Shown here in pieces: positions 34,182 through 63,370 of a stretch of DNA of 64,000 nt. Numbering within the stretch: the first letter of the stretch is position 1; the number at the start of each line of letters is the position of its first letter. A model generated the notes under the pieces. The model did not search any database and was not told where the DNA came from. It saw nothing but the letters and a program-made list of their open reading frames with translations. The position numbers were made by a program, and so were the translations under genes. This stretch comes from Streptomyces sp. NBC_00224 (GTDB lineage: Bacteria > Actinomycetota > Actinomycetes > Streptomycetales > Streptomycetaceae). The stretch lies in contig NZ_CP108107.1 in the NCBI RefSeq assembly GCF_041435195.1, positions 124,001-188,000 of the forward strand, written 5' to 3'.

Positions 34182-34251
34182 GCGTTGGTGGTCCAAGGAA
34201 AGGCGCCCCACTTCCTGTGGGGAGATGTAGGTGCAAGGCCTGCCCAGCGCT
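34182..34251 (+). tRNA. tRNA-Gly(UCC)-like gene with non-canonical T-loop
   Basis: The 70 bases fold as a full cloverleaf. The 7-bp acceptor is GCGTTGG with CCAGCGC, with one G-U pair. The D-arm is 34191-34204 with GG in the loop. The 5-bp anticodon stem is CCCCA/TGGGG around CTTCCTG, so the anticodon is TCC at 34213-34215. A four-base variable loop and a 5-bp T-stem (GTAGG/CCTGC) follow. Glycine identity elements are all present: G1-C72, C2-G71, G3-C70, U73, C35 and C36. Departures are T-loop TGCAAGG (G at position 55), U at position 37 and no encoded CCA. A terminator follows after seven bases. It may be a specialised or a decaying tRNA. Confidence 0.55.
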
Positions 34252-34258
34252 CGATGAA

Positions 34259-51241: not shown

Positions 51242-52246
51242 TCAGAGCCCGTAGCGCTCGGGTTTCGGGGTGCGGGACATCAGCAACTCAGCGGCTTGCG
51301 CGGCGGTGAGCTGCCCGTTGATGACGCCAACGACGACCTCAGTGATGGGCATCTCCACGCCGTGCCTTTGGGCCAAGGAGAGAAGCGCTGTGGACGACTT
51401 GACGCCCTCGGCGGTCTGGGTGGTGGCCGCGGTTGCCTGTGCGAGACTCAGGCCTTCGCCCAGATACCGACCGAAGGTCCGGTTGCGGGAGAGCGGCGAA
51501 GAGCAGGTCGCGATCAGGTCGCCCACCCCAGCCAGTCCGGAGAACGAGATCGGGTCGGCGCCGAGTACCGCGCCGAGCCGGGCGGTCTCCGCAAGTCCCC
51601 GGGTCATCAGCACGGCGGTCGCGTTGTCGCCGAGGCCCAGCCCACCTGCCAGGCCGACGGCCAGGGCAATGACGTTCTTGACCGCGCCGCCGAGCTCGCA
51701 GCCCACGATGTCCGTGTTGGTGTACGGGCGGAAGTACGAGGTGAGGAACGCGCCTTGTAGCCGCTCGGCCACCATGTGGTCGGGGCAGGCGATGACGGAG
51801 GCGGCAGGCCGACGGGCGGCGACCTCCCGGGCCAGGTTCGGTCCGGAGAGCACCGCGACGCGTTCGGCGGGTAGGCCTGCCACCTGGCGGATCACCTGCG
51901 ACATGCGCAGGCCGCTGTCGGTCTCGATGCCCTTCATCAGGCTGACCACGATGGTGGACGGGCCGATCAGGGGCGCCCATGCGGCGAGGTTGGCGCGAAG
52001 GGTCTGCGCGGGAATCGACACCACCGCGATGTCGGCTCCGGCGAGCGCCTGGGCGGGGTCCGTGGTCGCGCGCAGCGAGGCGGGCAGGTCGATGTCGGGC
52101 AGGTAGTCGGGGTTCACGTGGCGGGTGTTGATCGCGTCGGCGATCTCGCTGCGGCGGGCATGGACGGTGACGTCGGTGCTGGCGTCGGCGAGTACGGCCG
52201 CGACCGTTGTGCCCCACGAACCGGCTGAAAGGACCGCCGCCTTCAT
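51242..52246 (-). CDS. GpsA-like NAD(P)-dependent glycerol-3-phosphate dehydrogenase family
   Basis: This 334-residue enzyme has Rossmann motif VLSAGSWGTTVAAVLA, HARR after strand 2, the VVSLMKGIE segment, VLSGPNLAREVA and the catalytic Lys region GGAVKNVIALAVGLAGGLGLGDN. It matches GpsA throughout, although the first motif has Ser where Gly is usual (SAGSWGT). It starts 36 bp behind the methyltransferase gene in the RiPP operon and may be co-opted for tailoring, or be a plain second gpsA. Housekeeping gpsA in Streptomyces lies in a different, conserved setting. Confidence 0.9.
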   Translation of the reverse strand: MKAAVLSAGSWGTTVAAVLADASTDVTVHARRSEIADAINTRHVNPDYLPDIDLPASLRATTDPAQALAGADIAVVSIPAQTLRANLAAWAPLIGPSTIVVSLMKGIETDSGLRMSQVIRQVAGLPAERVAVLSGPNLAREVAARRPAASVIACPDHMVAERLQGAFLTSYFRPYTNTDIVGCELGGAVKNVIALAVGLAGGLGLGDNATAVLMTRGLAETARLGAVLGADPISFSGLAGVGDLIATCSSPLSRNRTFGRYLGEGLSLAQATAATTQTAEGVKSSTALLSLAQRHGVEMPITEVVVGVINGQLTAAQAAELLMSRTPKPERYGL

Positions 52247-52282
52247 CGTCTTCGTCTTCCTCTCGTCGGTGACGTACGGAGC

Positions 52283-53065
52283 CTATAGACCCGCGGGTCC
52301 CTGAGGCTGCGGGCGGCGCAGGGTCAGCGTCAGAGCCCGGCGGCCTGCGAGGCGGTCAAGCATGCGGTGCGCCTCGCCGAGCATGTTCTGGGCTTGCGTG
52401 TCGCCCAGCTCGCGGCGCAGCTCGTCTGCGTGCGCGATCCACAGCCGGTACAGGCGGGCCCACATGGCAGGCTCGCCGGGCCTCTCGTCCACGTACTCGA
52501 CGGTGAAGCCCGCGGCCTGCTCCTGCTCGGTGACGGTGGTGGTGTCGCGGCGTACGGCGCGGGTGAGGACGGCGCGGCCGCCGGGCTTGAGGATCCGGTG
52601 CATCTCCCGCAGAGCCGCCGCGCGGTCCGCGGCGCAGCTGAGGGCGTCCACGCAGATCACCCCGTCCGCCTGGGCGTCGGGCAAGCCGGACGCCTCCAGC
52701 GTTCCCACGGCGAAGGCCGCCTGGCCCGGGGGGACGAAGGTGCATCTGCGGGTGGTGGCGAGCTGGATGGCGACCGGGGAGAGGTCGATGCCGATCAACC
52801 GCACGGCCAGGGCGCGAGCGAGCCACAGGCCTACCCCGCCGCTCCCGCACCCCATGTCCACGAGGAGTTGGCCGGGCCCCAGACGCAGGCGGCCCACGAG
52901 CGTGGCGAGCAGCCGCCAGTCGCACGAGCTGTCCGCGGCGACTTCGGTGGCGTAGGCGTCTCCCATGGCCTCGGCGTACAGCGCGGCCACCAGGCAGGTG
53001 CGGGACCGTGCGCGGTGGAAAGCGTCGAAGCCCGCCCGGAGGTGGTGCTCGGTGGTGCTGTTCAC
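52283..53065 (-). CDS. Class I SAM-dependent methyltransferase in the RiPP operon
   Basis: This 260-residue methyltransferase has motif I LLVDMGCGSGGVGLWLARAL, acidic loop IGIDLSPVAI and VDALSCAADRAAALREMHRILKPGGRAVLTR. GTG at 53065 overlaps the YcaO stop as GTGA, so it is translationally coupled. A longer frame lies inside the YcaO gene. The target may be the modified precursor peptide (N-, O- or S-methylation) or a small intermediate. Fold and SAM binding are secure; substrate is inferred from operon context. Confidence 0.92.
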   Translation of the reverse strand: MNSTTEHHLRAGFDAFHRARSRTCLVAALYAEAMGDAYATEVAADSSCDWRLLATLVGRLRLGPGQLLVDMGCGSGGVGLWLARALAVRLIGIDLSPVAIQLATTRRCTFVPPGQAAFAVGTLEASGLPDAQADGVICVDALSCAADRAAALREMHRILKPGGRAVLTRAVRRDTTTVTEQEQAAGFTVEYVDERPGEPAMWARLYRLWIAHADELRRELGDTQAQNMLGEAHRMLDRLAGRRALTLTLRRPQPQGPAGL

Positions 53066-54216
53066 CGGGGCACCGCCTTGCGGATTCTGGAGCGTGCGCC
53101 GGGACAGATGACCTTGACGGCGGCTACCCGGTCGTCGGCAGCGGACAAGATCAGGCGGATGGGTTCGTGCCCGGTGACCTGGTGGATGCGGCGGGCGACG
53201 CGGGCGCTCTGCTTGGGGAAGGAGGCGGCGAACCGCAGAGGCGCGGCGTCGGCCGCCCACGCTGGCCACGGCATGTGCGGCCCTGGGGAGGAGGTGAAGC
53301 GGGGCGGGCCGGTGGTGGCGTCGTGGTGGGAGGGCAGGTCGTCGCGGGTCCCGGCGATGGAGGTGAGGCGGGACTGCACGGCCTCGGTGATGGCACGGGA
53401 GAGCGCGATGTGCGGAGTCCCGTGGCATCCGCTCCCGGCGAAGACAGCCGCCGGGTAGTCCTCGCACCACACGAACGCCAGGCACACCGGGACGGCGTAA
53501 GCGTTGTCCACGGCCGCGATTTCGACCGCCACGCCTGCTTGCCGGAGTCGGTCGAGGAGCGTGCGACAGTACGGATCGTCGACCGAAGCGGGGTCGATCA
53601 GCTGACGGTGGGTGCCGCCTTTGATCTCATCGGCGAACAGGGCGTCGCGCTCGACGACTTCGTACAGGGCGTGCAGCAGTGCTTCGGGGCGGGTGGTGCC
53701 GCAGGCCAGGCCGGTGCTGGTGGCGCGGAACAGGTCCGGCTCCCACAGCGGCCGGCACCCGTGGCGGCGCACCAAACCCAGGGGCACCGGCACCTGGCGC
53801 CCGCTGATCAGTCCGGTGCCGTACATCCACTCCAGCTGCACCTTCTCCGCGCCAGTCAGGGCCTCGCCGCTCACCTTCACCGGCAGGGCCGCCAGCGGGT
53901 AGGGCAGGTCGATGTCGGCGGCGGCCGCCCGCAACTCGACTGTCCGGGGCTGCTCGACGTGCCATAGCTCGATGGCTTCCATCACGGCGGAGGTCTTCGC
54001 CAGCAGGTCGGTGGCGCCCTTGCCCTGGGTGGCGACCAGGGTTTTGGCGGCGGGGCGGATCGCCGTCCACACCGGCAGACCCAGATGGTCGAGGCCGGTC
54101 AGCCGGGCGACGCGGGTGATCCCGTAGCGTCGCAGCAGGGGCTTTAAGACCGCCCACGTCTCCTCCGGGCTTCGCGCCCGTACCGTCCCGTCCAGCGTCA
54201 GCACGTCATCGGGCAT
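53062..54216 (-). CDS. YcaO-domain cyclodehydratase/thioamidation enzyme
   Basis: This 384-residue YcaO protein has ATP-binding glutamates in KTSAVMEAIELWHVE, ATSTGLACG, then EALLHALYEVVERDALF and SRAITEAVQSRLTSI. YcaO enzymes phosphorylate backbone amides; with a TfuA partner they install thioamides. The C-terminus (RIRKAVPR) lacks the Pro-rich tail of azoline-forming members, consistent with a thioamide type. Codon 24 is TTA (54147-54145), a rare bldA-dependent codon. It overlaps the TfuA gene by 11 bases and the methyltransferase by four. Confidence 0.95.
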   Translation of the reverse strand: MPDDVLTLDGTVRARSPEETWAVLKPLLRRYGITRVARLTGLDHLGLPVWTAIRPAAKTLVATQGKGATDLLAKTSAVMEAIELWHVEQPRTVELRAAAADIDLPYPLAALPVKVSGEALTGAEKVQLEWMYGTGLISGRQVPVPLGLVRRHGCRPLWEPDLFRATSTGLACGTTRPEALLHALYEVVERDALFADEIKGGTHRQLIDPASVDDPYCRTLLDRLRQAGVAVEIAAVDNAYAVPVCLAFVWCEDYPAAVFAGSGCHGTPHIALSRAITEAVQSRLTSIAGTRDDLPSHHDATTGPPRFTSSPGPHMPWPAWAADAAPLRFAASFPKQSARVARRIHQVTGHEPIRLILSAADDRVAAVKVICPGARSRIRKAVPR

Positions 54217-55456
54217 CGGTCAGCTTCCTTGTCTGCTCCTGGTCGTGGACGAGCCCGGCCATGAAGACCTTCAGCTCCTCGGTCGCATGCGCGCTGCTCC
54301 GGAATCCCCGAGAGGCCGCCGCCTCCTCCAGACGGGCGGGCGCTATGTCCCACAGGCGCAGCAGCACCCGGCGCGTCGTGTCCTCGTCCACGGCCTGCGG
54401 ACAGAACCCGGCTTGGGCACGGCGGGCGGTGTCGTTGCACGCCGTATACCGGGTGATGGCTGCCCGGTCGGCGGCCGTCTCCCGCTCCAGCAGGCGCGCC
54501 ACCGTCCCGCTGTCACGCAGGTCCGGCTGAGGGCGGAAGAGGACATGCGCGGGCGGGGCGCCCTCAGGTGCCACGCTCCGGATCCGCTCCGCCAGTGGCA
54601 TCCCCCGCGTCCCGTCACCGGGGTGGCGGGAGAGGTGGTCCAAGAAGCCGGACCACACCTGTGGGAAGACGGGATCGAACAGCTGCTGGTAGGCCACGCG
54701 CTGAGCGGTGTGAAGGAGCACGCCGTCGACGTTCTGCGTGGCGAATGCGTTGCCCCACCGCCGGAAGTAGCCGCTCTCCCCCGCCCCCGTCGTCGAGCGC
54801 CAGAGCGGCAGCGGGCCGGCCAGCGCCACCTGGACGGCTTCGAGCGCGTCGTCGCGCTTGACGTCGGCGAAGAACGGATCCGCGGCCTTGTGTTCTTCGA
54901 GCCAGGCCGCCAGCGTTCGCGCGCCGCGTCTGCGGCAGACGGCCAGGACCGCGGCGACCGTGCGCTGCGGGTAGTAGACCGCCCGCGCAGCCTCCAACAG
55001 CGCGGCTGCGGCCTCGCGCGTCACCACCCTCTCACCGACGGCGAGCCTGAAGGCCTGACGGACGTTCACCAGTGGCCAGGTCAGCGCCCGCAGATCACCG
55101 TCCGGTGCCTGGCCGACCGCCACCTCGTCGTCCCCGTCGATCTCTCCTCGCCGGTAGGCGCGGAAGACGCGGCCCACTCCGGTCATCCCGAACCGGTGGA
55201 GCTCGGCCGCGCGCAGCGCCCCCACGGACGCGGCCCCGATCACGCGGACGCCCCGGTCGAGCAGGCCCACGAGTTCCTTGTGGCGTACGGCGGGGGCCTG
55301 GTGCCAGGCCCCGTCGATGACCACCACCGTGTCTTCGCTGACGATCGCCGGGTCGAACAGGTCCCCGTGGCGCACCGGCTGCAACACCCGGATGCGGGGC
55401 GTGGCCAGGACCGGCTCCGCGCGGCCCAGGGTCGGGCCGACGTACACGTGGATCAC
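54206..55456 (-). CDS. TfuA-like protein, YcaO partner
   Basis: This 416-residue protein has the TfuA-like core: VYVGPTLG at the N-terminus, GVRVIGAASVGALRAAEL near residue 75 and GRVFRAYRRGEIDGDDEVAV. In thioamide pathways TfuA is proposed to deliver sulphur to YcaO. GTG at 55456 is chosen as it precedes the conserved IHVYVG strand; a longer frame crosses the precursor gene. The C-terminal 190 residues are more divergent and Arg-rich. It lies behind the precursor gene and a strong hairpin. Confidence 0.93.
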   Translation of the reverse strand: MIHVYVGPTLGRAEPVLATPRIRVLQPVRHGDLFDPAIVSEDTVVVIDGAWHQAPAVRHKELVGLLDRGVRVIGAASVGALRAAELHRFGMTGVGRVFRAYRRGEIDGDDEVAVGQAPDGDLRALTWPLVNVRQAFRLAVGERVVTREAAAALLEAARAVYYPQRTVAAVLAVCRRRGARTLAAWLEEHKAADPFFADVKRDDALEAVQVALAGPLPLWRSTTGAGESGYFRRWGNAFATQNVDGVLLHTAQRVAYQQLFDPVFPQVWSGFLDHLSRHPGDGTRGMPLAERIRSVAPEGAPPAHVLFRPQPDLRDSGTVARLLERETAADRAAITRYTACNDTARRAQAGFCPQAVDEDTTRRVLLRLWDIAPARLEEAAASRGFRSSAHATEELKVFMAGLVHDQEQTRKLTDAR

Positions 55457-55481
55457 CGTGCAGCACCACCTTCGAAACGGG

Positions 55482-55520
55482 CCTGCGGTGCCGGAGGGAC
55501 CTCGTCTCCGGCACCGCAGG
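55482..55520 (-). terminator. Hairpin between precursor peptide gene and tfuA-like gene
   Basis: CCTGCGGTGCCGGAG and its perfect 15-bp complement enclose a nine-base loop, starting 14 bases after the precursor stop. It would act as a partial terminator and 3'-end stabiliser, giving more precursor than enzyme mRNA, as in many RiPP operons. Confidence 0.75.
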
Positions 55521-55533
55521 GCCGATGGGAGGG

Positions 55534-55662
55534 TCAGGGACCCTCGTCCTCCACGTCCTCGATGCGCACCACGCCCGACAGCGCAACGATCGAGATGACG
55601 CCGCCCGGCGCGTCCACCACGACGGGCCCCTGCAGGGCTTGTTCGGACTTGGACTGCTCCAT
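55534..55662 (-). CDS. Putative RiPP precursor peptide (42 aa)
   Basis: The peptide has a hydrophilic leader (MEQSKSEQALQG), then VVVDAPGG, a hydrophobic VISIVALSGVVRI stretch and an acidic C-terminus EDVEDEGP. It contains no Cys, Thr or Tyr and only four Ser, so azol(in)e or lanthionine formation is limited; backbone thioamidation needs no special side chain. AGGAGGAATCC precedes the ATG perfectly. It is the first gene upstream of TfuA-YcaO, with hairpins on both sides. The precursor role is inferred from position, size and sequence character. Confidence 0.75.
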   Translation of the reverse strand: MEQSKSEQALQGPVVVDAPGGVISIVALSGVVRIEDVEDEGP

Positions 55663-55677
55663 GGATTCCTCCTCTCG

Positions 55678-55706
55678 TAGGGCGCGGACCGGATGCCCGC
55701 GCCCTA
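55678..55706 (-). promoter_or_regulatory. Leader hairpin just upstream of the precursor Shine-Dalgarno
   Basis: TAGGGCGCGG and CCGCGCCCTA form a perfect 10-bp stem with a nine-base loop, ending about five bases from the AGGAGG. It may stabilise the 5' end of a highly abundant precursor mRNA. Confidence 0.6.
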
Positions 55707-55784
55707 TGGGTGATGGATGCCGCCCCCTCGGGGGAAGGGGCGGGAAGGGGGCCACCGGATCCGCAGCGGGCGGGCCCCTCCGGC

Positions 55785-55860
55785 GCCGCCCCGGCGAAAA
55801 AGGGTCGCCGGGGCGGCAACGCTCCGCGCCGGAGGGTGGAGAGCGGCGCCGGCGCGGAGC
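55785..55860 (-). terminator. Two tandem hairpins upstream of the precursor gene
   Basis: A 13-bp perfect stem (GCCGCCCCGGCGA, 55785-55797, with 55805-55817) is preceded in the minus-strand transcript by a 12-bp stem (55821-55832 with 55849-55860). They directly follow the possible small gene at 55865-56024 and could terminate it, isolating the precursor transcript. Confidence 0.65.
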
Positions 55861-55864
55861 CGTC

Positions 55865-56024
55865 TCAGGTCCGCGACACCGCGTATCGCAACAGCTGTTC
55901 CACCGCGCCAGCCCGCCGCAGTGCCGACCGGACGGGCACGCGCCAGGGTCCTGGCGAGCCGGATGTCGCGGGAGATGGTCGTGGGGGAAGGGGGCGTTCC
56001 CTGCTGTTCGGGTGTGGCGGTCAT
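55865..56024 (-). other. Possible small, frameshifted peptide gene
   Basis: ATG at 56024 has a strong Shine-Dalgarno (GGAAGGACC). It encodes MTATPEQQG and then TISRDIRLARTLARA. A +1 shift near 55930 would lead to VPVRSALRRAGAVEQLLRYAVSRT and a stop at 55865, five bases before the hairpin at 55860. Without the shift the frame reads on through both hairpins to 55704, which is less plausible. It could be a second small peptide of the RiPP locus, a decayed gene, or a sequence error. Confidence 0.35.
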
Positions 56025-56081
56025 CGGGGTCCTTCCGCAGGCTTCGGCGTGGCTCTCGGGCCCGCGCGCCGTACGCAGTAA

Positions 56082-56095
56082 GTAACCGCCGTTAC
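56082..56095. promoter_or_regulatory. Inverted repeat between RiPP operon and TPR regulator
   Basis: GTAAC-CGCC-GTTAC lies midway between the divergent starts at 56024 and 56203. It is an obvious candidate operator for the TPR regulator. Confidence 0.55.
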
Positions 56096-56202
56096 CGGTG
56101 GGCCGGCCATGACCAACCGTCGGTGGCCTGCTTGCACGCACCCTGTCGTATTGACCGCTTCTTTACCCGTTGAGGGTGGGTCTCCGGTTCTACGGTGGAG
56201 CC

Positions 56203-57471
56203 ATGGACCGCAAGCGCAACGCGGCGCTGATCCGCTGGATGGCCAAGTACACGATGACGACCCGCGAGTTCTCGGACGCCCTCAACGGCTACATCGGGGA
56301 ACTGACCGGCCGCCAGGGGATCGTCACCGAGCGCACCGTCCTCAAGTGGCGTGCGGGCGAGATCCGCTGGCCCCAGACCGTCCAGCGCGCCGCGATCCAG
56401 GCCGTCACCGGGCAGGCGCCCTCCGACTTAGGGTTCGTCGCCCCCACGCGCAGCACCCGACGGCAGAAGGAGGGCTCGGCCGTGCACCGTCGCCGTTTCG
56501 TCACTGTCACCACCGGAACGGCCCTCGGCGCCCTCATGCCCGTCCCCGTCAAGGGCCCAAGCCCGCGCGTCGGCGCCCCGGATGTGGAGCTGCTGACCGC
56601 CAAGCTCGCGGCGGTCGTGGCGTCCGACAACCGGCACGGCGGCACTACGAAAGTCGAAGTCCGCGCCGCCCAGCTCGCCCGCCAGACCCTTGCCCTTCAA
56701 CAGCACGGCACCGTCACTTCCCGGGTCCGCGGGCAGCTGTACTCGCTTGCCGCCGCGTTCACCTCCTCCGCCATGTGGGCCGCCATCGACGGCCACCGCC
56801 TGGACGCCGCGCAACAGCACATGCAACAAGCCGTCACCCTGGCCGGCCTGTCCGGCGATACCGCCATCGTCTTCCGCGTCTGGGGGCACGCCGGAGCGCT
56901 CTACCGCCACCTCGGCCGCTACACCGACGCCCTCGCCGCCGACGACGCCGCCCGCTCCACCAGCATCGTGCGCCGCGACCCGCTCTACGCCTCCCTCGCC
57001 CACGCCCGCACCGCCGTCCACCATGGCGACCTGCGCGACCACAACGCCGTCAAGCGCAGCATCGGCCACGCCCACGATGCCCTCACCCGCGCCGACACCA
57101 CGGCCCCGCGACCGCCCTGGATGCTGTTCTACGACCAGGCCGAACTGGAACTCCTCGGACTCATCGCGCACGTCTCCCTCCACCACTGGGCCGACGCCGA
57201 AGCCCACGCCCACCGCCACCTCGCCCTGCTGCGCCCCGACCTTGTACGCAACCGCTCCCTGGCCCTGGCCCACATGGCCCGCGCCCAGCTCGAACAAGGC
57301 GCCCTCGAAGCAGCCGTCTCCTCCGCACACGCCATCCCGCCCGACGCCTGGCACGGCCGGACTGGAAAGCTCGTCAAAGGCTTCACCGGCCGCCTGTCCG
57401 GCCTCACCTCCAACGACCCGGCGGCCCGGTCCTGGGCCGACTACACCCGAGAGAAAGGCATGTTCACGTGA
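56203..57471 (+). CDS. HTH-TPR regulator of the RiPP locus, with a TTA codon
   Basis: This 422-residue regulator has an N-terminal HTH-like domain (IRWMAKYTMTTREFSDALNGYIG, then TERTVLKWRAGEIRWP). A linker with HRRRFVTVTTGTALGAL and TPR helices such as LARQTLALQQHGT and LYRHLGRYTDALAADDAA follow. Codon 76 is TTA (56428-56430), so translation should need the bldA tRNA. GTGGAG lies before the ATG. It is divergent from the precursor operon with an inverted repeat between, and translationally coupled to the acetyltransferase behind it. It is the best candidate for pathway-specific control. Confidence 0.88.
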   Translation: MDRKRNAALIRWMAKYTMTTREFSDALNGYIGELTGRQGIVTERTVLKWRAGEIRWPQTVQRAAIQAVTGQAPSDLGFVAPTRSTRRQKEGSAVHRRRFVTVTTGTALGALMPVPVKGPSPRVGAPDVELLTAKLAAVVASDNRHGGTTKVEVRAAQLARQTLALQQHGTVTSRVRGQLYSLAAAFTSSAMWAAIDGHRLDAAQQHMQQAVTLAGLSGDTAIVFRVWGHAGALYRHLGRYTDALAADDAARSTSIVRRDPLYASLAHARTAVHHGDLRDHNAVKRSIGHAHDALTRADTTAPRPPWMLFYDQAELELLGLIAHVSLHHWADAEAHAHRHLALLRPDLVRNRSLALAHMARAQLEQGALEAAVSSAHAIPPDAWHGRTGKLVKGFTGRLSGLTSNDPAARSWADYTREKGMFT

Positions 57472-58995: not shown

Positions 58996-59997
58996 TCAGT
59001 GGCCGGACCCGGCCCGGCCGGTGCCGGAGCCGGTGGCTGTCCGACGGATCGCGTCGAGCAGCGAGGCCTGGTCCAGCACCGGATCGTCGGACGGTGCGCC
59101 GCCCTCGCGCACCGCACGCGCGAAGGCGCTGACCGCCGCGGCCACCTGGTCCTCGGGCGCGAGGGCGATCTCCTCGGTGCGGGTGCCGCGCTCCAGACGC
59201 AGTACGGGCCGGTGGTCGGCGGGGGGTGTGAAGGCACGGTCCACCGTGATCCGGCCCTCGGAGCCGCGCAGTTCGTACCCCGAATGGTAGGCGTGCCCGA
59301 TCCCGAACGTCAGATGGGCGACGGCGCCCGCCTCACTCCGCAGGAGCGCGGCCCCCGAGGTATCGACCTCGCGGCCGGGGTCGGACATGAGGACCGCCCC
59401 GGCGACCGTGAGAGGGGAGCCGAGCAGGTACAGAGCCGCCCGCACCGGATAGACGCCGACGTCCCACAACGCGCCGCCGCCGAGCGCCGCCCGGTAGCGG
59501 ATGTCGTGCTCGGGCCGGGCCGGGACGGCGAACGAGGCTTGCAGCGAGCGTGTCTGACCGATCGCGCCGTCGCGGACCAGCGCGCGCACCGCGGCGTGCT
59601 GTCCGTGGTGCACGAACAGCACGTTCTCCACGAGGGCCAGACCGCGGGCCGACGCGAGCCGCAGGAGCTCGGCCGTACGCACCTGGCTGGTGGTCAGCGG
59701 CTTTTCCGCCAGTACGTGTTTACCGGCGCGCAGAGCCGCCTCCACCCAGACGTCGTGGAGCGCGGCGGGCAGCGGCACGTACACGGCGTCGACATCGTCG
59801 CGTGCCAGCAACGCGTCGTATCCGTGCACGGCCGCGCACCCGAAGCGCCGCGCCGTCTCGTTCGCCTTGTGGGCGTCCCGGCTGGCGACGGCGATCAGCT
59901 CCACGTCCGCCGAGGCGGCCATGGCGGGGAGCATCCGGCGCAGCGCGATGTCCGCGCAGCCGAGGACGGCGACCCGTACGCGGGACGTCACGGGCAT
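58996..59997 (-). CDS. Gfo/Idh/MocA oxidoreductase, putative NDP-sugar 3-ketoreductase
   Basis: This 333-residue enzyme has Rossmann motif VAVLGCADIALRRMLPAM, then VASRDAHKANETARRFG, AVYVPLPAALHDVWVEAALRAGKHVLAEKPLTTS with the catalytic Lys in the EKP motif, and GGGALWDVGVYPVRAALYLLG (Asp and Tyr in the C-domain). This matches the family that reduces 3-keto groups of dTDP-deoxysugars after 2,3-dehydration (UrdT/SpnN/KijD10 type). It begins 37 bp behind the E1-like dehydrase. Substrate specificity is inferred from neighbours. Confidence 0.9.
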   Translation of the reverse strand: MPVTSRVRVAVLGCADIALRRMLPAMAASADVELIAVASRDAHKANETARRFGCAAVHGYDALLARDDVDAVYVPLPAALHDVWVEAALRAGKHVLAEKPLTTSQVRTAELLRLASARGLALVENVLFVHHGQHAAVRALVRDGAIGQTRSLQASFAVPARPEHDIRYRAALGGGALWDVGVYPVRAALYLLGSPLTVAGAVLMSDPGREVDTSGAALLRSEAGAVAHLTFGIGHAYHSGYELRGSEGRITVDRAFTPPADHRPVLRLERGTRTEEIALAPEDQVAAAVSAFARAVREGGAPSDDPVLDQASLLDAIRRTATGSGTGRAGSGH

Positions 59998-60034
59998 GCG
60001 CGCCTGCCTTCGTGGAGCGGGGAACGGCCGGCCA

Positions 60035-61339
60035 TCAGCCGCGACTCGCGATGAACTCCTTCACCGTGGAGACGACGTAGTCGATCATCTCGTCGGTGAT
60101 GGCGGGGTAGACGCCGATCCAGAAGGTCTGGTCGGTGATGATGTCGCTGTTCGTCAGGTCACCGACGACGCGGTGCCGCTGGTCCTGGTAGGCCGGGTGG
60201 CGGGTCAGGTTGCCGGCGAACAGACGCCGCGTGCCGATCTTGCGCTCCTCCAGGTGGTCGACGAACTCGGCGCGGCTGAACGGCGCTTCGCGGTCGACGG
60301 TGATCGCGAAGCCGAACCAGCTCGGGTCGCTGCGGTCGGTGGCCTCGGGCAGCAGCAGGTGCGGGACGCCGTCGAGGCCCTCGCGCAGACGGCGCCAGTT
60401 GTGCCGGCGCGCGTCGCAGAAGTCGTCCAGCTTGGCCAGCTGCGTCAGGCCCAGCGCCGCCTGGATGTCGGTCGCCTTCAGGTTGTAACCGACGTGGGAG
60501 AAGATGTACTTGTGGTCGTAGCCCTCCGGCAGGCTGCCCATCTGGTACTTGAAGCGCTTGAGGCACTTGTCGTTCTCGCCCGGCTCGCACCAGCAGTCGC
60601 GGCCCCAGTCGCGCAGCGACTCCACGATCCGGGCCAGCGCCAGGTTCGAGGTGAGGACGCAGCCGCCCTCGCCCATCGTGAGGTGGTGCGCGGGATAGAA
60701 GCTGACCGTGGTCATGTCGCCGAAGGTGCCGGTCAGCTGGCCGTCGTACGTGGAGCCCACCGCGTCGCAGTTGTCCTCGATCAGGAACAGCCCCCGGTCG
60801 GCGGCCAGTTGGGCGATCTCGGCGACCTCGAAGGGGTTGCCGAGGGCGTGCGCGATGATGATGGCCCGGGTACGCGGGCCGATTGCCTGCTCCACCCGGG
60901 CGGCGGTGGTGTTGTACGTGCCGAGCTCGACGTCGACGAAGACGGGAGTGAGGCCGTTCTGCAGAATGGGGTTGACGGTGGTGGGAAACCCGGCGGCGAC
61001 CGTGATGATCTCGTCGCCCGGCCGCAGCCGCTCGTCCTCCAGCACGTGCGAGGTCAGTGCGGACACCGCCAGCAGGTTCGCGGAGGACCCGGAGTTCGTC
61101 AGATGCGCCTTACGGCGCTTCATCTTGCGGGCGAAGGACGACTCGAACTTGCGGGAGCTGACGCCCGCGGCGATCCGCATCTCCAGCGCCGCCTCGACCA
61201 GCGCGACCCGGTCCTCCTCCTCCAGGACCGCGCCGGACGGCCAGATCTCGGTCACGCCGGGAACGAAGCCGCCCTGCGGCTGGGTGTCCTGGTGGAACTT
61301 GCGGACCTCGTCGAGCACGAGGTTCTTGTGAGCGCTCAC
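60035..61339 (-). CDS. E1/SpnQ/UrdQ-type Fe-S PMP-dependent NDP-hexose 3-dehydrase
   Basis: This 434-residue DegT/DnrJ-fold enzyme has PMP chemistry: the PLP-lysine is replaced by His in SFYPAHHLTMGEGG. An exact C-X57-C-X1-C-X7-C set (from EDNC to DCWCEPGENDKC) matches the [2Fe-2S] site of AscC (E1). It would remove the C3 hydroxyl of a 4-keto-6-deoxy or 2,6-dideoxy sugar with electrons from a reductase not seen here. GTG at 61339 overlaps the preceding stop as GTGA. It points to a 3-deoxysugar such as rhodinose, amicetose or a forosamine precursor. Confidence 0.95.
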   Translation of the reverse strand: MSAHKNLVLDEVRKFHQDTQPQGGFVPGVTEIWPSGAVLEEEDRVALVEAALEMRIAAGVSSRKFESSFARKMKRRKAHLTNSGSSANLLAVSALTSHVLEDERLRPGDEIITVAAGFPTTVNPILQNGLTPVFVDVELGTYNTTAARVEQAIGPRTRAIIIAHALGNPFEVAEIAQLAADRGLFLIEDNCDAVGSTYDGQLTGTFGDMTTVSFYPAHHLTMGEGGCVLTSNLALARIVESLRDWGRDCWCEPGENDKCLKRFKYQMGSLPEGYDHKYIFSHVGYNLKATDIQAALGLTQLAKLDDFCDARRHNWRRLREGLDGVPHLLLPEATDRSDPSWFGFAITVDREAPFSRAEFVDHLEERKIGTRRLFAGNLTRHPAYQDQRHRVVGDLTNSDIITDQTFWIGVYPAITDEMIDYVVSTVKEFIASRG

Positions 61340-62346
61340 GTGCGCGTCCTTTCTTGCTCCGGCAGCCGGACGGCCGCGAGCAGATCTGTCAGTGATGTGT
61401 CCAGGTCCACGGCGGGCTGCCAGCCGAGAAGGCGCCGCGCCCGCGAGATGTCCAGCTGCTGCCATTCCAGGTCCGCGCGCAGTACGCGGGCGTCCTGGCC
61501 CGGCCCGGCCCGGCCGGGCACCGGCGGCGGCCGGTGCTCGGTCAGCCGCACGGGCCGGTCCGCCAGGGATATGAGCCGTTCGACCAGCCGGCGTACGGGT
61601 ACGGCCTCGCCCCGGGCGATGTTGATGACGCGGCCGGTGACCTCGCCGGCCGGGGCGGTCGCCGCGAGCACGGCGGCGGCCGCGACGTCCCGGACGTCCA
61701 CGAAGTCGCGCTGAGCGCGCAGCGGCGCGAGCCGCAGCTCCGCCCGCTCGGCGCCGTCGTGGGCGGGCTCCGGTGCGGCGAGGCGGTGCGCGACCGTTCC
61801 CAGGAGGCTGTTGGCCGGCACGCCCGGTCCCGTGGCGTTGGCGACCCGCAGCACCACGGCGGCGAGCCCCCGCTCGCGGACGGTGTCCAGCACCGCCTCG
61901 GTGGCGGCGAGCTTGGTGCGCCCGTACACCGAGACGGGCGCGCACACGGCGTCCTCGGCGGTGCTGGTGCCCGGCTCGCTCGGCCCGTACTCGTGGGAGC
62001 TGCCCAGCTGGACGAGGCGGGCCGGGGTCGCCAGCGCCGCCGTCGCACGGGCGAGCCGCTCGGCGAAGCGGGCGTTGAGGGACCACATGCGGTCCTCCTC
62101 GGCCTGCCACACCACACCGGCCGCGTTCACGATCACCTGGGGTGCCACGTCGGCCAGCAGCGCCGCCACGTCCTGTGTCGGCGCACCGAGTTCGTGGTGC
62201 AGATGCACCAGGCCGTCGTCGCCGGGCCGCGTCCGGGACCGGCCGCGCGAGACGCAGACGACACGGTGCCCCGCGGCGCGGAACGCGGCACACAGATGCC
62301 CGCCCATGAATCCGGTGCCGCCCAGCACCAGGGCCGTGGGGGCCAT
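61336..62346 (-). CDS. NDP-hexose 4-ketoreductase (extended SDR)
   Basis: This 336-residue NAD(P)-dependent epimerase/reductase has GGTGFMGGHLC at the N-terminus, Ser in QLGSSHEYG, the SVYGRTK Tyr-Lys pair and the RDFVDVRDVAAAAV segment typical of 4-ketoreductases. It should set the C4 stereocentre as a late step of the deoxysugar pathway. ATG at 62346 overlaps the stop of the dehydratase gene by one base. Stereochemistry (D or L) cannot be inferred. Confidence 0.9.
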   Translation of the reverse strand: MAPTALVLGGTGFMGGHLCAAFRAAGHRVVCVSRGRSRTRPGDDGLVHLHHELGAPTQDVAALLADVAPQVIVNAAGVVWQAEEDRMWSLNARFAERLARATAALATPARLVQLGSSHEYGPSEPGTSTAEDAVCAPVSVYGRTKLAATEAVLDTVRERGLAAVVLRVANATGPGVPANSLLGTVAHRLAAPEPAHDGAERAELRLAPLRAQRDFVDVRDVAAAAVLAATAPAGEVTGRVINIARGEAVPVRRLVERLISLADRPVRLTEHRPPPVPGRAGPGQDARVLRADLEWQQLDISRARRLLGWQPAVDLDTSLTDLLAAVRLPEQERTRT

Positions 62347-63320
62347 CAGGGTCTGTTCCCCTTCAGCGGCTTCCACCAGGCGGGGTTGTCGCGGTACCAG
62401 GCGAAGGTGTCGGCGAGCCCCTGCTCGAAGGAGACGCGGGGGGCGTACCCCAGCTCTTCCCTGATCTTCGTGTCGTCCAGGGCGTAGCGCAGATCGTGGC
62501 CCAGGCGGTCGGCGACGCGACGGATCACGGAGCTGTCGGCGCCGCCCAGTTCCACCAGGCGCTCCGCGATCTCGCGGTTCGTCCGCTCGTTGCCGCCGCC
62601 CACGTTGTAGACCTCGCCGGCCGCCCCGTTCAGGAGCACCAGGCAGATGGCCCGGCAGTGGTCGTCGACGTGCAGCCACTCCCGGATGTTCAGGCCGTCG
62701 CCGTACAGCGGGAGCGGGATGCCCTCGATGAGGTTGGTGACGAACAGCGGGATGAGCTTCTCGGGGTGCTGGTACGGGCCGTAGTTGTTGGAGCAGCGGG
62801 TGATCGACAGATTGAGGCCGTGGGTGCGCCAGTAGGCCCGGGCGATCAGGTCGGAGGCGGCCTTGGAGGCGGCGTACGGGGAGTTGGGCAGCAGCGGTTC
62901 CTGCTCCGTCCAGGAGCCGGAGTCGATGGAGCCGTACACCTCGTCGGTGGAGACGTGCACGACCCGCTCCACGCCGGTGCGCCGGCACGCCTCGAAGACG
63001 TTCTGGCTGCCCTCCGCGTTGGTGCGGACGAACACGTTCGCGTCGTCGATGGAGCGGTCCACGTGCGACTCGGCGGCGAAGTGCACCACCGCGTCGTGCC
63101 CGGGGAGCAGGTCAAGCAGCAGCGGAAGATCGAGGATGTCGCCCTGGACGAAGTCGAGGCGCGGGTCGGCGGCGGGCAGGTTGGCGCGGTTGCCGGCGTA
63201 GCTGAGCGAGTCGAGGACGGTGACCGCAGCGCCTTCGAGCCCGGGGTAGCCGTCTTCGAGCAGGGTGCGGACGAAGTGGGAACCGATGAAGCCGGCCCCA
63301 CCGGTGACGAGCACTCTCAC
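62346..63320 (-). CDS. dTDP-glucose 4,6-dehydratase (RmlB/GerE/DesIV type)
   Basis: This 324-residue extended SDR opens VRVLVTGGAGFIGSHFVRTLLEDG. It has VHVSTDEVYG, the active Thr-Asp-Glu (STDE) set, SPYAASKAASDLI (Tyr/Lys) and SNNYGPYQHPEKLIPLFVTN. It makes the 4-keto-6-deoxy intermediate from dTDP-glucose, the common entry step. GTG at 63320 has AAGGAGA and overlaps the stop of a 17-codon leader frame as GTGA. It heads the visible sugar operon, 147 bp behind the glycosyltransferase gene. Confidence 0.96.
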   Translation of the reverse strand: MRVLVTGGAGFIGSHFVRTLLEDGYPGLEGAAVTVLDSLSYAGNRANLPAADPRLDFVQGDILDLPLLLDLLPGHDAVVHFAAESHVDRSIDDANVFVRTNAEGSQNVFEACRRTGVERVVHVSTDEVYGSIDSGSWTEQEPLLPNSPYAASKAASDLIARAYWRTHGLNLSITRCSNNYGPYQHPEKLIPLFVTNLIEGIPLPLYGDGLNIREWLHVDDHCRAICLVLLNGAAGEVYNVGGGNERTNREIAERLVELGGADSSVIRRVADRLGHDLRYALDDTKIREELGYAPRVSFEQGLADTFAWYRDNPAWWKPLKGNRP

Positions 63321-63370
63321 CGCGTCTCCTTCTTCACGAGGGCACCTGTCCGGCACCGGGCTGCAGTCAT
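63317..63370 (-). CDS. 17-residue leader peptide coupled to the dehydratase gene
   Basis: ATG at 63370 has GAGGAGACC upstream and encodes MTAARCRTGALVKKETR, ending in TGA that overlaps the dehydratase GTG. The Shine-Dalgarno of the dehydratase lies in its last codons. It probably serves translational coupling; no attenuation signal (codon run plus hairpin) is evident. Confidence 0.45.
   Translation of the reverse strand: MTAARCRTGALVKKETR

What the first reader, a model, noticed from the sequence alone, without database searches (positions are those of the whole stretch)
51242..57471. Compact YcaO-TfuA RiPP cluster with a cysteine-free 42-residue precursor
Precursor-like peptide, TfuA, YcaO and methyltransferase lie in order on one strand with overlaps between TfuA, YcaO and the methyltransferase, and a GpsA-like enzyme 36 bp behind. 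YcaO-TfuA pairs are established thioamide-forming enzymes (thioviridamide and thiovarsolin pathways), and genome mining has shown many uncharacterised actinobacterial families. The precursor has no Cys and a hydrophobic, acid-tailed core unlike thioviridamide or the repeat-type thiovarsolin precursor. This may be an undescribed thioamidated peptide.
Basis: partly seen in the sequence, partly recalled or inferred. Interest (0 to 1): 0.95.

Follow-up and report, generated by a model that had tools for sequence, protein, structure and literature searches.

The report
Peptide operon carrying its predicted target
A plasmid of a soil bacterium carries a five-gene operon predicted to make a sulfur-modified (thioamidated) peptide, and its last gene is a second copy of a housekeeping lipid-precursor enzyme that related genomes often hold without the rest of the operon, which suggests that the copy protects the maker and that the enzyme is likely what the peptide attacks.

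Summary
It is a conserved family: of 29 close TfuA-YcaO loci, 25 have a recognisable precursor, 28 the MT, and 25 of 26 assessable the GpsA. Precursors share an SKS start and a near-invariant tail (VVRIEDVEDEGP here, mostly VVVAVDVEDEE). Thioamidation is predicted, not shown.

It is an extra copy beside the chromosomal one, in its own clade. In 392 genus genomes operon-type GpsA with an undamaged frame occurs in at least 22; 14 have no close TfuA-YcaO, against 1 of 13 for YcaO (Fisher p 0.0015). In 8 loci MT is broken or shortened and GpsA whole; one locus shows the reverse. This fits self-protection, so the peptide may inhibit glycerol-3-phosphate dehydrogenase; tailoring remains possible. 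The precursor family may already sit unnamed in RiPPER's networks; the GpsA link was not found in print.

The parts
55534..55662 (-). precursor peptide, 42 aa, MEQSKSEQALQGPVVVDAPGGVISIVALSGVVRIEDVEDEGP
   Evidence: homologues at the same place in other operons; annotated as a hypothetical protein on NZ_CP108254.1
54206..55456 (-). TfuA, 416 aa: N-terminal TfuA domain plus a helical C-terminal half with no match in the PDB fold search
   Evidence: PF07812; 6xp8 M. acetivorans TfuA; AF2 model mean pLDDT 83, pTM 0.56
53062..54216 (-). YcaO, 384 aa, of the TfuA-partnered kind
   Evidence: PF02624; nearest solved relative MJ1094, 6pe3/6peu; M79, H182, A279 at the places where TfuA-partnered YcaOs prefer Met, His, Ala
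52283..53065 (-). class I SAM-dependent methyltransferase, 260 aa
   Evidence: PF08241; conserved next to YcaO
51242..52246 (-). GpsA-type NAD(P)H glycerol-3-phosphate dehydrogenase, second copy in the genome; proposed immunity gene
   Evidence: NF000942; chromosomal copy 64% identical; own clade; orphan pattern
56194..57471 (+). divergent NsdA-family TPR regulator, likely regulator of the operon
   Evidence: NF053720, 236 bits, cut-off 75; NsdA plus GNAT also beside the operon in L201, L208, L209
57468..58010 (+). GNAT acetyltransferase, partner of the NsdA-type gene
   Evidence: PF00583

Best explanation
The operon encodes a 42-residue precursor, a YcaO-TfuA pair, a methyltransferase and a second GpsA; the first four are predicted to make a thioamidated, methylated peptide, and the GpsA copy is likely the maker's immunity, a tolerant duplicate of the housekeeping glycerol-3-phosphate dehydrogenase that the peptide would inhibit. 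Steps, with status: (1) the precursor is translated and recognised, probably through its conserved SKS start and acidic VVRIEDVEDEGP end (inferred from conservation); (2) YcaO activates a backbone amide with ATP and TfuA delivers sulfide, giving a thioamide, most likely in the Val-rich stretch before the acidic tail (inferred from the enzyme family); (3) the MT adds a methyl group at an unknown site (inferred); (4) unknown proteases trim and release the product (inferred; none is in the operon); (5) the product blocks GpsA, possibly at the cofactor pocket, where the main-type operon copies differ from housekeeping ones (inferred); (6) the operon copy keeps glycerol-3-phosphate supply running in the maker and in relatives that lack the pathway (inferred; the excess of lone GpsA copies is shown).
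For: Operon and precursor conservation. Nearest solved YcaO is MJ1094, recalled as the McrA-thioamidating enzyme. The genome has a chromosomal gpsA as well; 15 of 15 genomes have a housekeeping copy. The 17 operon GpsAs form one clade with 3 orphans (100/100), apart from 42 housekeeping copies. Main-type signature: S7 22 of 23, H29 23 of 23, A80 23 of 23, against G7 39, W29 41, S80 39 of 42 housekeeping copies. The eight recalled catalytic or substrate positions are kept in 26 of 26 operon or partial copies and 15 of 17 orphans. In 392 genus genomes the main-type GpsA has an undamaged frame in at least 22: 7 operon, 1 partial, 14 without close TfuA-YcaO; close YcaO stands without MT and GpsA in 1 of 13 genomes (Fisher p 0.0015). 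In 8 loci (L178, L206, L270, L275, L280-L283) GpsA is whole and MT broken or shortened. Orphans L271 and L275: dN/dS 0.16. A sister YcaO-TfuA locus with the same MT type lacks GpsA.
Against: No product, thioamide, target or resistance is shown. GpsA sits in the operon in 25 of 26 assessable loci, which also suits a biosynthetic role. One reverse case exists: in L204 (G474) the MT is whole and GpsA is frameshifted near its start; 8 to 1 gives p 0.039, 7 to 1 without the contig-edge locus L280 0.070, so this part is modest. The orphan L177 has lost its start codon, and broken GpsA remnants exist (L179-L182). G298 (L053) has TfuA, YcaO and MT up to a contig end and no second GpsA was found in its assembly. 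C-type operon GpsAs (L208, L209, L210) lack S7, H29 and R256, so those residues cannot be a general resistance signature; some housekeeping copies carry S7, H29 or A80 and R256 is ordinary in distant bacteria. Separate recruitment of the C-type copy is not significant (p-AU 0.28). 7 of 17 orphans have no remnant beside them, so there the direction of loss is not shown. f4, not only GpsA, is whole or nearly so beside three orphans.
Confidence: 0.42

Rival explanations
1. GpsA is a tailoring or supply enzyme: it reduces a carbonyl on the modified peptide, or makes glycerol-3-phosphate that is built into the product.
For: Present behind the MT in 25 of 26 assessable operons; close spacing (36 bp in the window); one operon with whole MT has a frameshifted GpsA (L204), so it is not indispensable to the carrier.
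Against: Whole copies occur in 14 of 392 genomes without the pathway and beside broken MT and evolve under constraint; residues of an ordinary G3P dehydrogenase are kept; no glycerol-phosphate transferase in the operon; sister loci L079/L081 use the same MT type without GpsA in reach (for L079 the contig ends 292 bp behind the MT, but genome G547, its counterpart, has a single GpsA match).
Confidence: 0.27
2. The operon GpsA is a generally useful isoenzyme (different cofactor preference or regulation) or an enzyme that destroys the peptide; it is kept for that reason and the peptide's target is something else.
For: Main-type signature residues S7, H29 and A80 lie, as recalled for this fold, around the cofactor site; the excess of lone copies is explained equally well.
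Against: Does not explain why the copy belongs to this operon; a generic isoenzyme should also occur widely outside the operon's own clade, which the tree did not show in its sample.
Confidence: 0.19
3. No secreted peptide: the YcaO-TfuA pair modifies a cellular protein, and the short ORF is a regulator or small subunit.
For: YcaO-TfuA pairs do modify proteins (McrA, PMC5589413, listing and start of abstract seen only); the operon has no transporter or protease.
Against: The short ORF is the first gene in 25 of 29 loci, with a variable middle and fixed ends, as expected of a precursor.
Confidence: 0.08

Closest known systems
Thioviridamide-like thioamitides (Streptomyces)
   Same: Precursor plus YcaO-TfuA pair, predicted backbone thioamides, actinobacterial
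   Different: Window precursor has no Cys; the operon lacks the further modifying enzymes of those pathways (recalled); adds GpsA
Thiovarsolins (S. varsoviensis; PMC6511847)
   Same: YcaO-TfuA RiPP found by genome mining in Streptomyces
   Different: No repeated core; none of the var accessory genes named in the passages seen (VarO, transporter, amidinotransferase) in the operon
std cluster of S. thermodiastaticus (PMC13174530, passages seen)
   Same: Conserved C-terminal motif as presumed core, YcaO-TfuA acting on it
   Different: Motif there is SNKEWQE, with MNIO, carbamoyltransferase and peptidase; none of these here
RiPPER Network 2: 25 Streptomyces peptides at the start of a conserved operon (PMC6511847, section 17)
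   Same: Genus, short mostly unannotated peptides, operon position; may be this very family
   Different: Not comparable: sequences are in a supplement that could not be opened; the main text has no occurrence of 'methyltransferase' or 'glycerol-3'
Clusters that encode a resistant copy of the target (resistance-gene-guided mining; PMC12616698, PMC8728217, starts of abstracts in the listing seen)
   Same: Extra copy of a housekeeping enzyme inside a biosynthetic operon, distinct from the chromosomal copy
   Different: No GpsA case found in the library; here the logic rests also on lone copies; resistance untested
Housekeeping GpsA (NAD(P)H-dependent glycerol-3-phosphate dehydrogenase)
   Same: Family score and recalled catalytic residues
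   Different: Separate clade and S7/H29/A80 signature in the main type; operon-borne, on a plasmid in the window

Membership tests
YcaO-TfuA thioamidated RiPP pathway | Adjacent YcaO and TfuA genes | tested here: met
   11-nt overlap, both above Pfam cut-offs
YcaO-TfuA thioamidated RiPP pathway | Residues preferred in TfuA-partnered YcaO (Met, His, Ala in ATP motifs, PMC8120280 section 15) | tested here: met
   M79, H182, A279; places matched by motif context, not by their alignment
YcaO-TfuA thioamidated RiPP pathway | Conserved precursor gene in the operon | tested here: met
   25 of 29 loci; none recognised in L054, L055, L056, L060 (L060 has only 205 bp upstream)
YcaO-TfuA thioamidated RiPP pathway | Thioamide in the product | not testable with these tools
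   needs mass spectrometry
Thioviridamide-like thioamitides | Cys-containing core that forms the C-terminal thioether ring (recalled) | tested here: not met
   no Cys in the window precursor
Thiovarsolins | Repeating core in the precursor | tested here: not met
   single non-repeated 42-aa sequence by inspection
std-type RiPP | SNKEWQE motif | tested here: not met
RiPPER Network 2 | Peptide within the 40% identity network of that set | not testable with these tools
   supplement look-ups were capped at 0
GpsA (glycerol-3-phosphate dehydrogenase) | Curated family score | tested here: met
   NF000942 438 bits, cut-off 257
GpsA (glycerol-3-phosphate dehydrogenase) | Catalytic and substrate residues (positions recalled from E. 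coli GpsA) | tested here: met
   K105, N137 (Thr in E. coli, as recalled), K190, D243, S253, R254, N255, E280
Self-resistance by target duplication | Second copy in the operon beside a housekeeping copy elsewhere | tested here: met
   housekeeping copy in 15 of 15, operon-type copy in 13 of 15 (not G064, G298)
Self-resistance by target duplication | Copy kept preferentially when the pathway is absent or decayed | tested here: met
   14 of 22 lone against 1 of 13 for YcaO, p 0.0015; remnant comparison 8 to 1 is weaker
Self-resistance by target duplication | Copy confers resistance to the product | not testable with these tools
   no product in hand

The most novel reading that the evidence does not exclude
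A family of plasmid-spread thioamidated peptides kills competitors by blocking GpsA, the entry point of glycerol-3-phosphate into membrane lipids; makers carry a tolerant GpsA as a gene of the operon, and many Streptomyces that make no peptide keep that GpsA alone as a shield. It would be the first ribosomal peptide aimed at GpsA, as far as the searches here show.
Probability: 0.33. Interest if true: 0.88.

Novelty: new variant of a known kind. Interest (0 to 1): 0.73.

Why it matters
Few YcaO-TfuA peptides are characterised (four classes before std, per PMC13174530 passages), while one survey counted 613 TfuA-related cluster families (PMC8120280). If the GpsA copy is immunity, the genes themselves name the target, turn an anonymous cluster family into a direct enzyme assay, and point to glycerol-3-phosphate supply as an antibacterial target; the listings showed no paper whose title reports a natural GpsA inhibitor. 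The lone copies would also show how a self-protection gene outlives its pathway.

Tried and rejected
TfuA C-terminal half as a recognition domain: an AF2 model (8 sequences) and Foldseek against PDB matched only 6xp8 over the N-terminal part; nothing else at E 0.001 or better, so this was dropped.

Residue signature as proof of resistance: S7/H29/A80/R256 looked diagnostic in 17 against 45 copies (3 of the 45 were orphans of the operon clade), but R256 is common in distant bacteria and the C-type operon copies keep G7, W29 and H256. Only A8, A80 and A194 are shared by both types, on 3 C-type sequences. I do not rest the case on residues. The odd letter at place 7 of L204 is an artefact of its frameshift.

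Second, independent recruitment of GpsA in C-type operons: favoured by the tree but not significant (p-AU 0.28); left open.

A 106-aa ORF upstream of the precursor (56024-55704): no counterpart was seen in the upstream short-ORF lists of relatives; dropped.

C-type search: found operon copies in G439 and G525 again, plus another copy in G221 and an extra one in G439; contexts of these two were not fetched, so they are not counted.

Rows dropped before counts: L105 (YcaO in pieces, no TfuA match) and L212 (truncated) from the 29 loci; duplicate loci from two collections counted once. Of the 29, TfuA looks damaged in L059 (frameshift) and its first 64 residues are unmatched in L055.

Mended on re-check: my first tally counted 24 whole main-type GpsAs (15 lone) and no reverse case. 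Searches showed that G474/L204 is frameshifted and G009/L177 has lost its start codon; the counts became 22 and 14, p 0.0015 (0.0033 without contig-edge L280, 0.0036 with L271/L275 also counted once), and the remnant comparison 8 to 1.
Full report
OBSERVATION. The window lies at 124,001-188,000 of a 220,250-base contig (C2) of a 9.18-Mb, 3-contig genome whose largest contig is 8.91 Mb. A linear plasmid of Streptomyces sp. NBC_00060 (NZ_CP108254.1, 220,216 bp) is 100% identical over the operon, and its annotation has the same five genes: hypothetical protein, TfuA-like, YcaO-like, class I SAM methyltransferase, NAD(P)H-dependent glycerol-3-phosphate dehydrogenase. The divergent regulator is of the NsdA family and is followed by a GNAT gene.

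THE OPERON IS A FAMILY. A YcaO search of 297 family genomes, one scan of named genome contigs (58 loci) and MT and YcaO searches of 392 genus genomes were used. Taking distinct loci with a TfuA-YcaO pair of this close type gives 29 (window included). A recognisable precursor lies just before TfuA in 25 of 29; not in L054, L055, L056, L060. MT follows in 28 of 29 (not L056; in L211 it runs off the contig). GpsA follows in 25 of the 26 whose contig reaches past it (not L056); L060 shows its first 20 codons at the contig's end, L053 and L211 end too early. One of the 25, L204, is frameshifted near its start, and TfuA is damaged in L059 and incomplete in L055. For L053 the genome (G298) showed no second GpsA at all, so it may truly lack it. 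L056 (same place as L032), without MT and GpsA, also has Gly in place of the Ser of the conserved GAAS-x-GALRA stretch of TfuA and may be dead. In the sampled genus the TfuA-YcaO-MT unit occurs in 12 of 392 genomes. In PLSDB, 27 plasmids encode a TfuA of this type at E 1e-60 or better, so plasmid carriage is common; only two of these records were opened, both with GpsA after the MT.

THE PRECURSOR. Twenty-six precursors (25 plus the partial locus L206) were aligned: V32 and D36 invariant, K5, S6, V37, E38, E40 in at least 90%. A profile search found 109 proteins at E 0.01 or better (only the 7,976 candidates sharing most words were scored). Tails: VVVAVDVEDEE 53, VVIAVDVEDEE 12, VVRSEDVEQEECYTF 11, VVRSEDVEQEECFTF 3, VVKSEDVEQEECFTF 3, VVRIEDVEDEGP (window type) 3, and rarer ones; 5 of 109 did not fit the pattern used; 23 of 109 hold Cys. 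I call the window type A, VVVAVDVEDEE type B and the ECYTF/ECFTF type C. The middle varies in sequence and length. A conserved C-terminal motif held the modified residues, with a removed follower, in the std pathway (PMC13174530, passages seen). A sister arrangement (L079, L081) pairs another YcaO-TfuA with the same MT type (55-56% identity) and a 46-47-residue peptide ending AYLAVTVTDDDEPAEEAFGF or a close variant, and no GpsA was matched there.

THE ENZYMES. The best solved match of YcaO is MJ1094 (6pe3/6peu, E 9e-40), which I recall to be the McrA-thioamidating YcaO. TfuA matches the solved M. acetivorans TfuA by sequence and by fold over its N-terminal part; its C-terminal half is predicted helical and had no significant PDB match. 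The mechanism of the pair (TfuA hydrolyses ThiS-COSH, sulfide attacks the YcaO-activated amide) is taken from passages of PMC13185837. The MT is a general class I enzyme; its best solved matches include sugar and small-molecule methyltransferases, and its site cannot be predicted.

GPSA. The genome's chromosome has its own gpsA, 64% identical to the operon copy. Housekeeping copies were found in 15 of 15 genomes searched; 13 of them have an operon-type copy too, G064 and G298 do not. In a tree, 17 operon copies plus 3 orphans form one clade (100/100) apart from 42 housekeeping copies. Main-type operon copies have S7 (22 of 23; the other is the frameshifted L204), H29 (23 of 23) and A80 (23 of 23), where 42 housekeeping copies have G (39), W (41) and S (39). 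From recalled knowledge of this fold these places are the first Gly of the cofactor loop, the end of the second strand and a loop near the cofactor; no structure was measured. The eight recalled catalytic and substrate positions are kept in 26 of 26 operon or partial copies and in 15 of 17 orphans (L177 has D for E280, L274 has A for S253). The C-type copies (L208, L209, L210) keep housekeeping letters at 7, 29 and 256 and fall with the housekeeping clade, but one clade for all operon copies is not rejected (p-AU 0.28).

LONE COPIES. In the same 392 genus genomes the main-type GpsA was found in at least 24 (the match list is cut below about 536 bits, so weaker copies may be missing). Two of these are damaged: G474 (operon, frameshift, L204) and G009 (lone, start codon lost, L177). 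Of the 22 with an undamaged frame, 7 have the operon, 1 is partial (G620, L206: precursor and whole GpsA, MT shortened, no TfuA or YcaO) and 14 have no close TfuA-YcaO (none of the 14 is among the 35 genomes matched at E 1e-60). Close YcaO without MT and GpsA: 1 of 13 genomes. Fisher exact p 0.0015; 0.0033 without L280, which lies at a contig start; 0.0036 if the syntenic L271 and L275 are also counted once. Whole MT of this type without its operon was not found among the 15 genomes: 12 operon, G620 and G514 shortened, G547 the sister arrangement.

DIRECTION OF LOSS. Seventeen lone-copy loci (the 14, G009, and L176 and L178 from other samples) were searched within about 8 kb, or to the contig end, for remnants. 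Pieces of MT lie directly upstream of GpsA in 8 (L177 and L280 weak; L178, L270, L275, L281, L282, L283). With L206 added and L177 taken out for its own damage, 8 loci have whole GpsA and broken or shortened MT; the reverse was seen once (L204). 8 to 1 gives p 0.039, 7 to 1 without L280 0.070, not corrected for kinship. Two further genes behind GpsA in B-type operons (f4, 117 aa; f5, 284 aa) or their pieces lie behind it in L178, L270, L274, L277 and L281; f5 is broken in all four loci where it is seen (L178, L270, L277, L281), while f4 is whole in L178 and nearly so in L270 and L281. Ten of 17 have some remnant; L176, L271, L272, L273, L276, L278 and L279 have none. Loci where GpsA itself is broken also exist (L179, L181) or where only a piece is left (L180, L182), so retention is not universal. 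Pairwise dN/dS (simple Nei-Gojobori count) is 0.16 between the syntenic lone copies L271 and L275, 0.22-0.27 from these to L177, and 0.11-0.33 over all 13 pairs tried. Lone copies are scattered over the operon clade: at least 9 changes of state are forced by well-supported branches (bootstrap not fully settled).

READING. A tailoring enzyme should decay with its pathway. A gene that protects from the product, or helps on its own, should not. An ordinary, by its residues catalytically complete copy of a housekeeping enzyme, separate from the chromosomal one, carried by the operon and found more often without it than with it, is what a tolerant target copy would look like; clusters that carry resistant versions of the inhibited protein are a known guide to targets (start of abstract of PMC12616698, listing). 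I therefore commit to immunity, with GpsA as the likely target, at 0.42, and keep tailoring (0.27) and an independent benefit or detoxification (0.19) as live rivals.

LITERATURE. No paper in the library holds YcaO, TfuA and glycerol-3-phosphate dehydrogenase together, nor glycerol-3-phosphate dehydrogenase with self-resistance and biosynthetic gene cluster. Papers used: PMC6511847 (sections 17 and 18 and find passages), PMC8120280 (section 9 part 1, sections 13 and 15), PMC13174530 and PMC13185837 (passages); others as listings with starts of abstracts only. Novelty is therefore claimed for the GpsA logic, not for the mere existence of the cluster.

Noticed in passing
L032 / L056 (Streptomyces sp. 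NBC_00249): TfuA-YcaO of this type without MT, GpsA or recognisable precursor; the otherwise conserved Ser in TfuA's GAAS-x-GALRA stretch is Gly, perhaps a dead remnant.
   Followed up: partly
L061:10102-11296, and 16-17 loci: B-type operons carry two more genes behind GpsA: a 117-aa protein with no Pfam match and a 284-aa membrane-like protein with a sub-threshold HTTM match; none was noted behind GpsA in the window.
   Followed up: partly
L079 (1297 +), L081 (6661 +): Sister YcaO-TfuA loci with the same MT type, no GpsA match, and 46-47-aa peptides with an AVTVTDDD motif: a possible related peptide family.
   Followed up: partly
L038 (11273 -), L041 (11558 -): Short peptides ending PLIIADTEIRN and PLVITDSEVVDC before TfuA in neighbouring TfuA clades, reminiscent of the hydrophobic-Asp-Glu tail.
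   Followed up: no
L277 (genome G524): Lone GpsA present twice, near both ends of an 11.5-Mb contig, as expected of terminal inverted repeats.
   Followed up: no
window 58996-63356 (-): Gfo/Idh/MocA oxidoreductase, RfbH-type dehydratase and an epimerase lie together on the same strand as the operon: deoxysugar-like genes, not seen beside the other operons.
   Followed up: no
window 34182-34252 (+): A tRNA-Gly (TCC) gene on a plasmid-like contig.
   Followed up: no
L208, L209, L210, L211: C-type precursors end in EECYTF, EECFTF or DECYTF, a Cys-containing tail after the shared acidic motif, so the product may differ in chemistry.
   Followed up: partly
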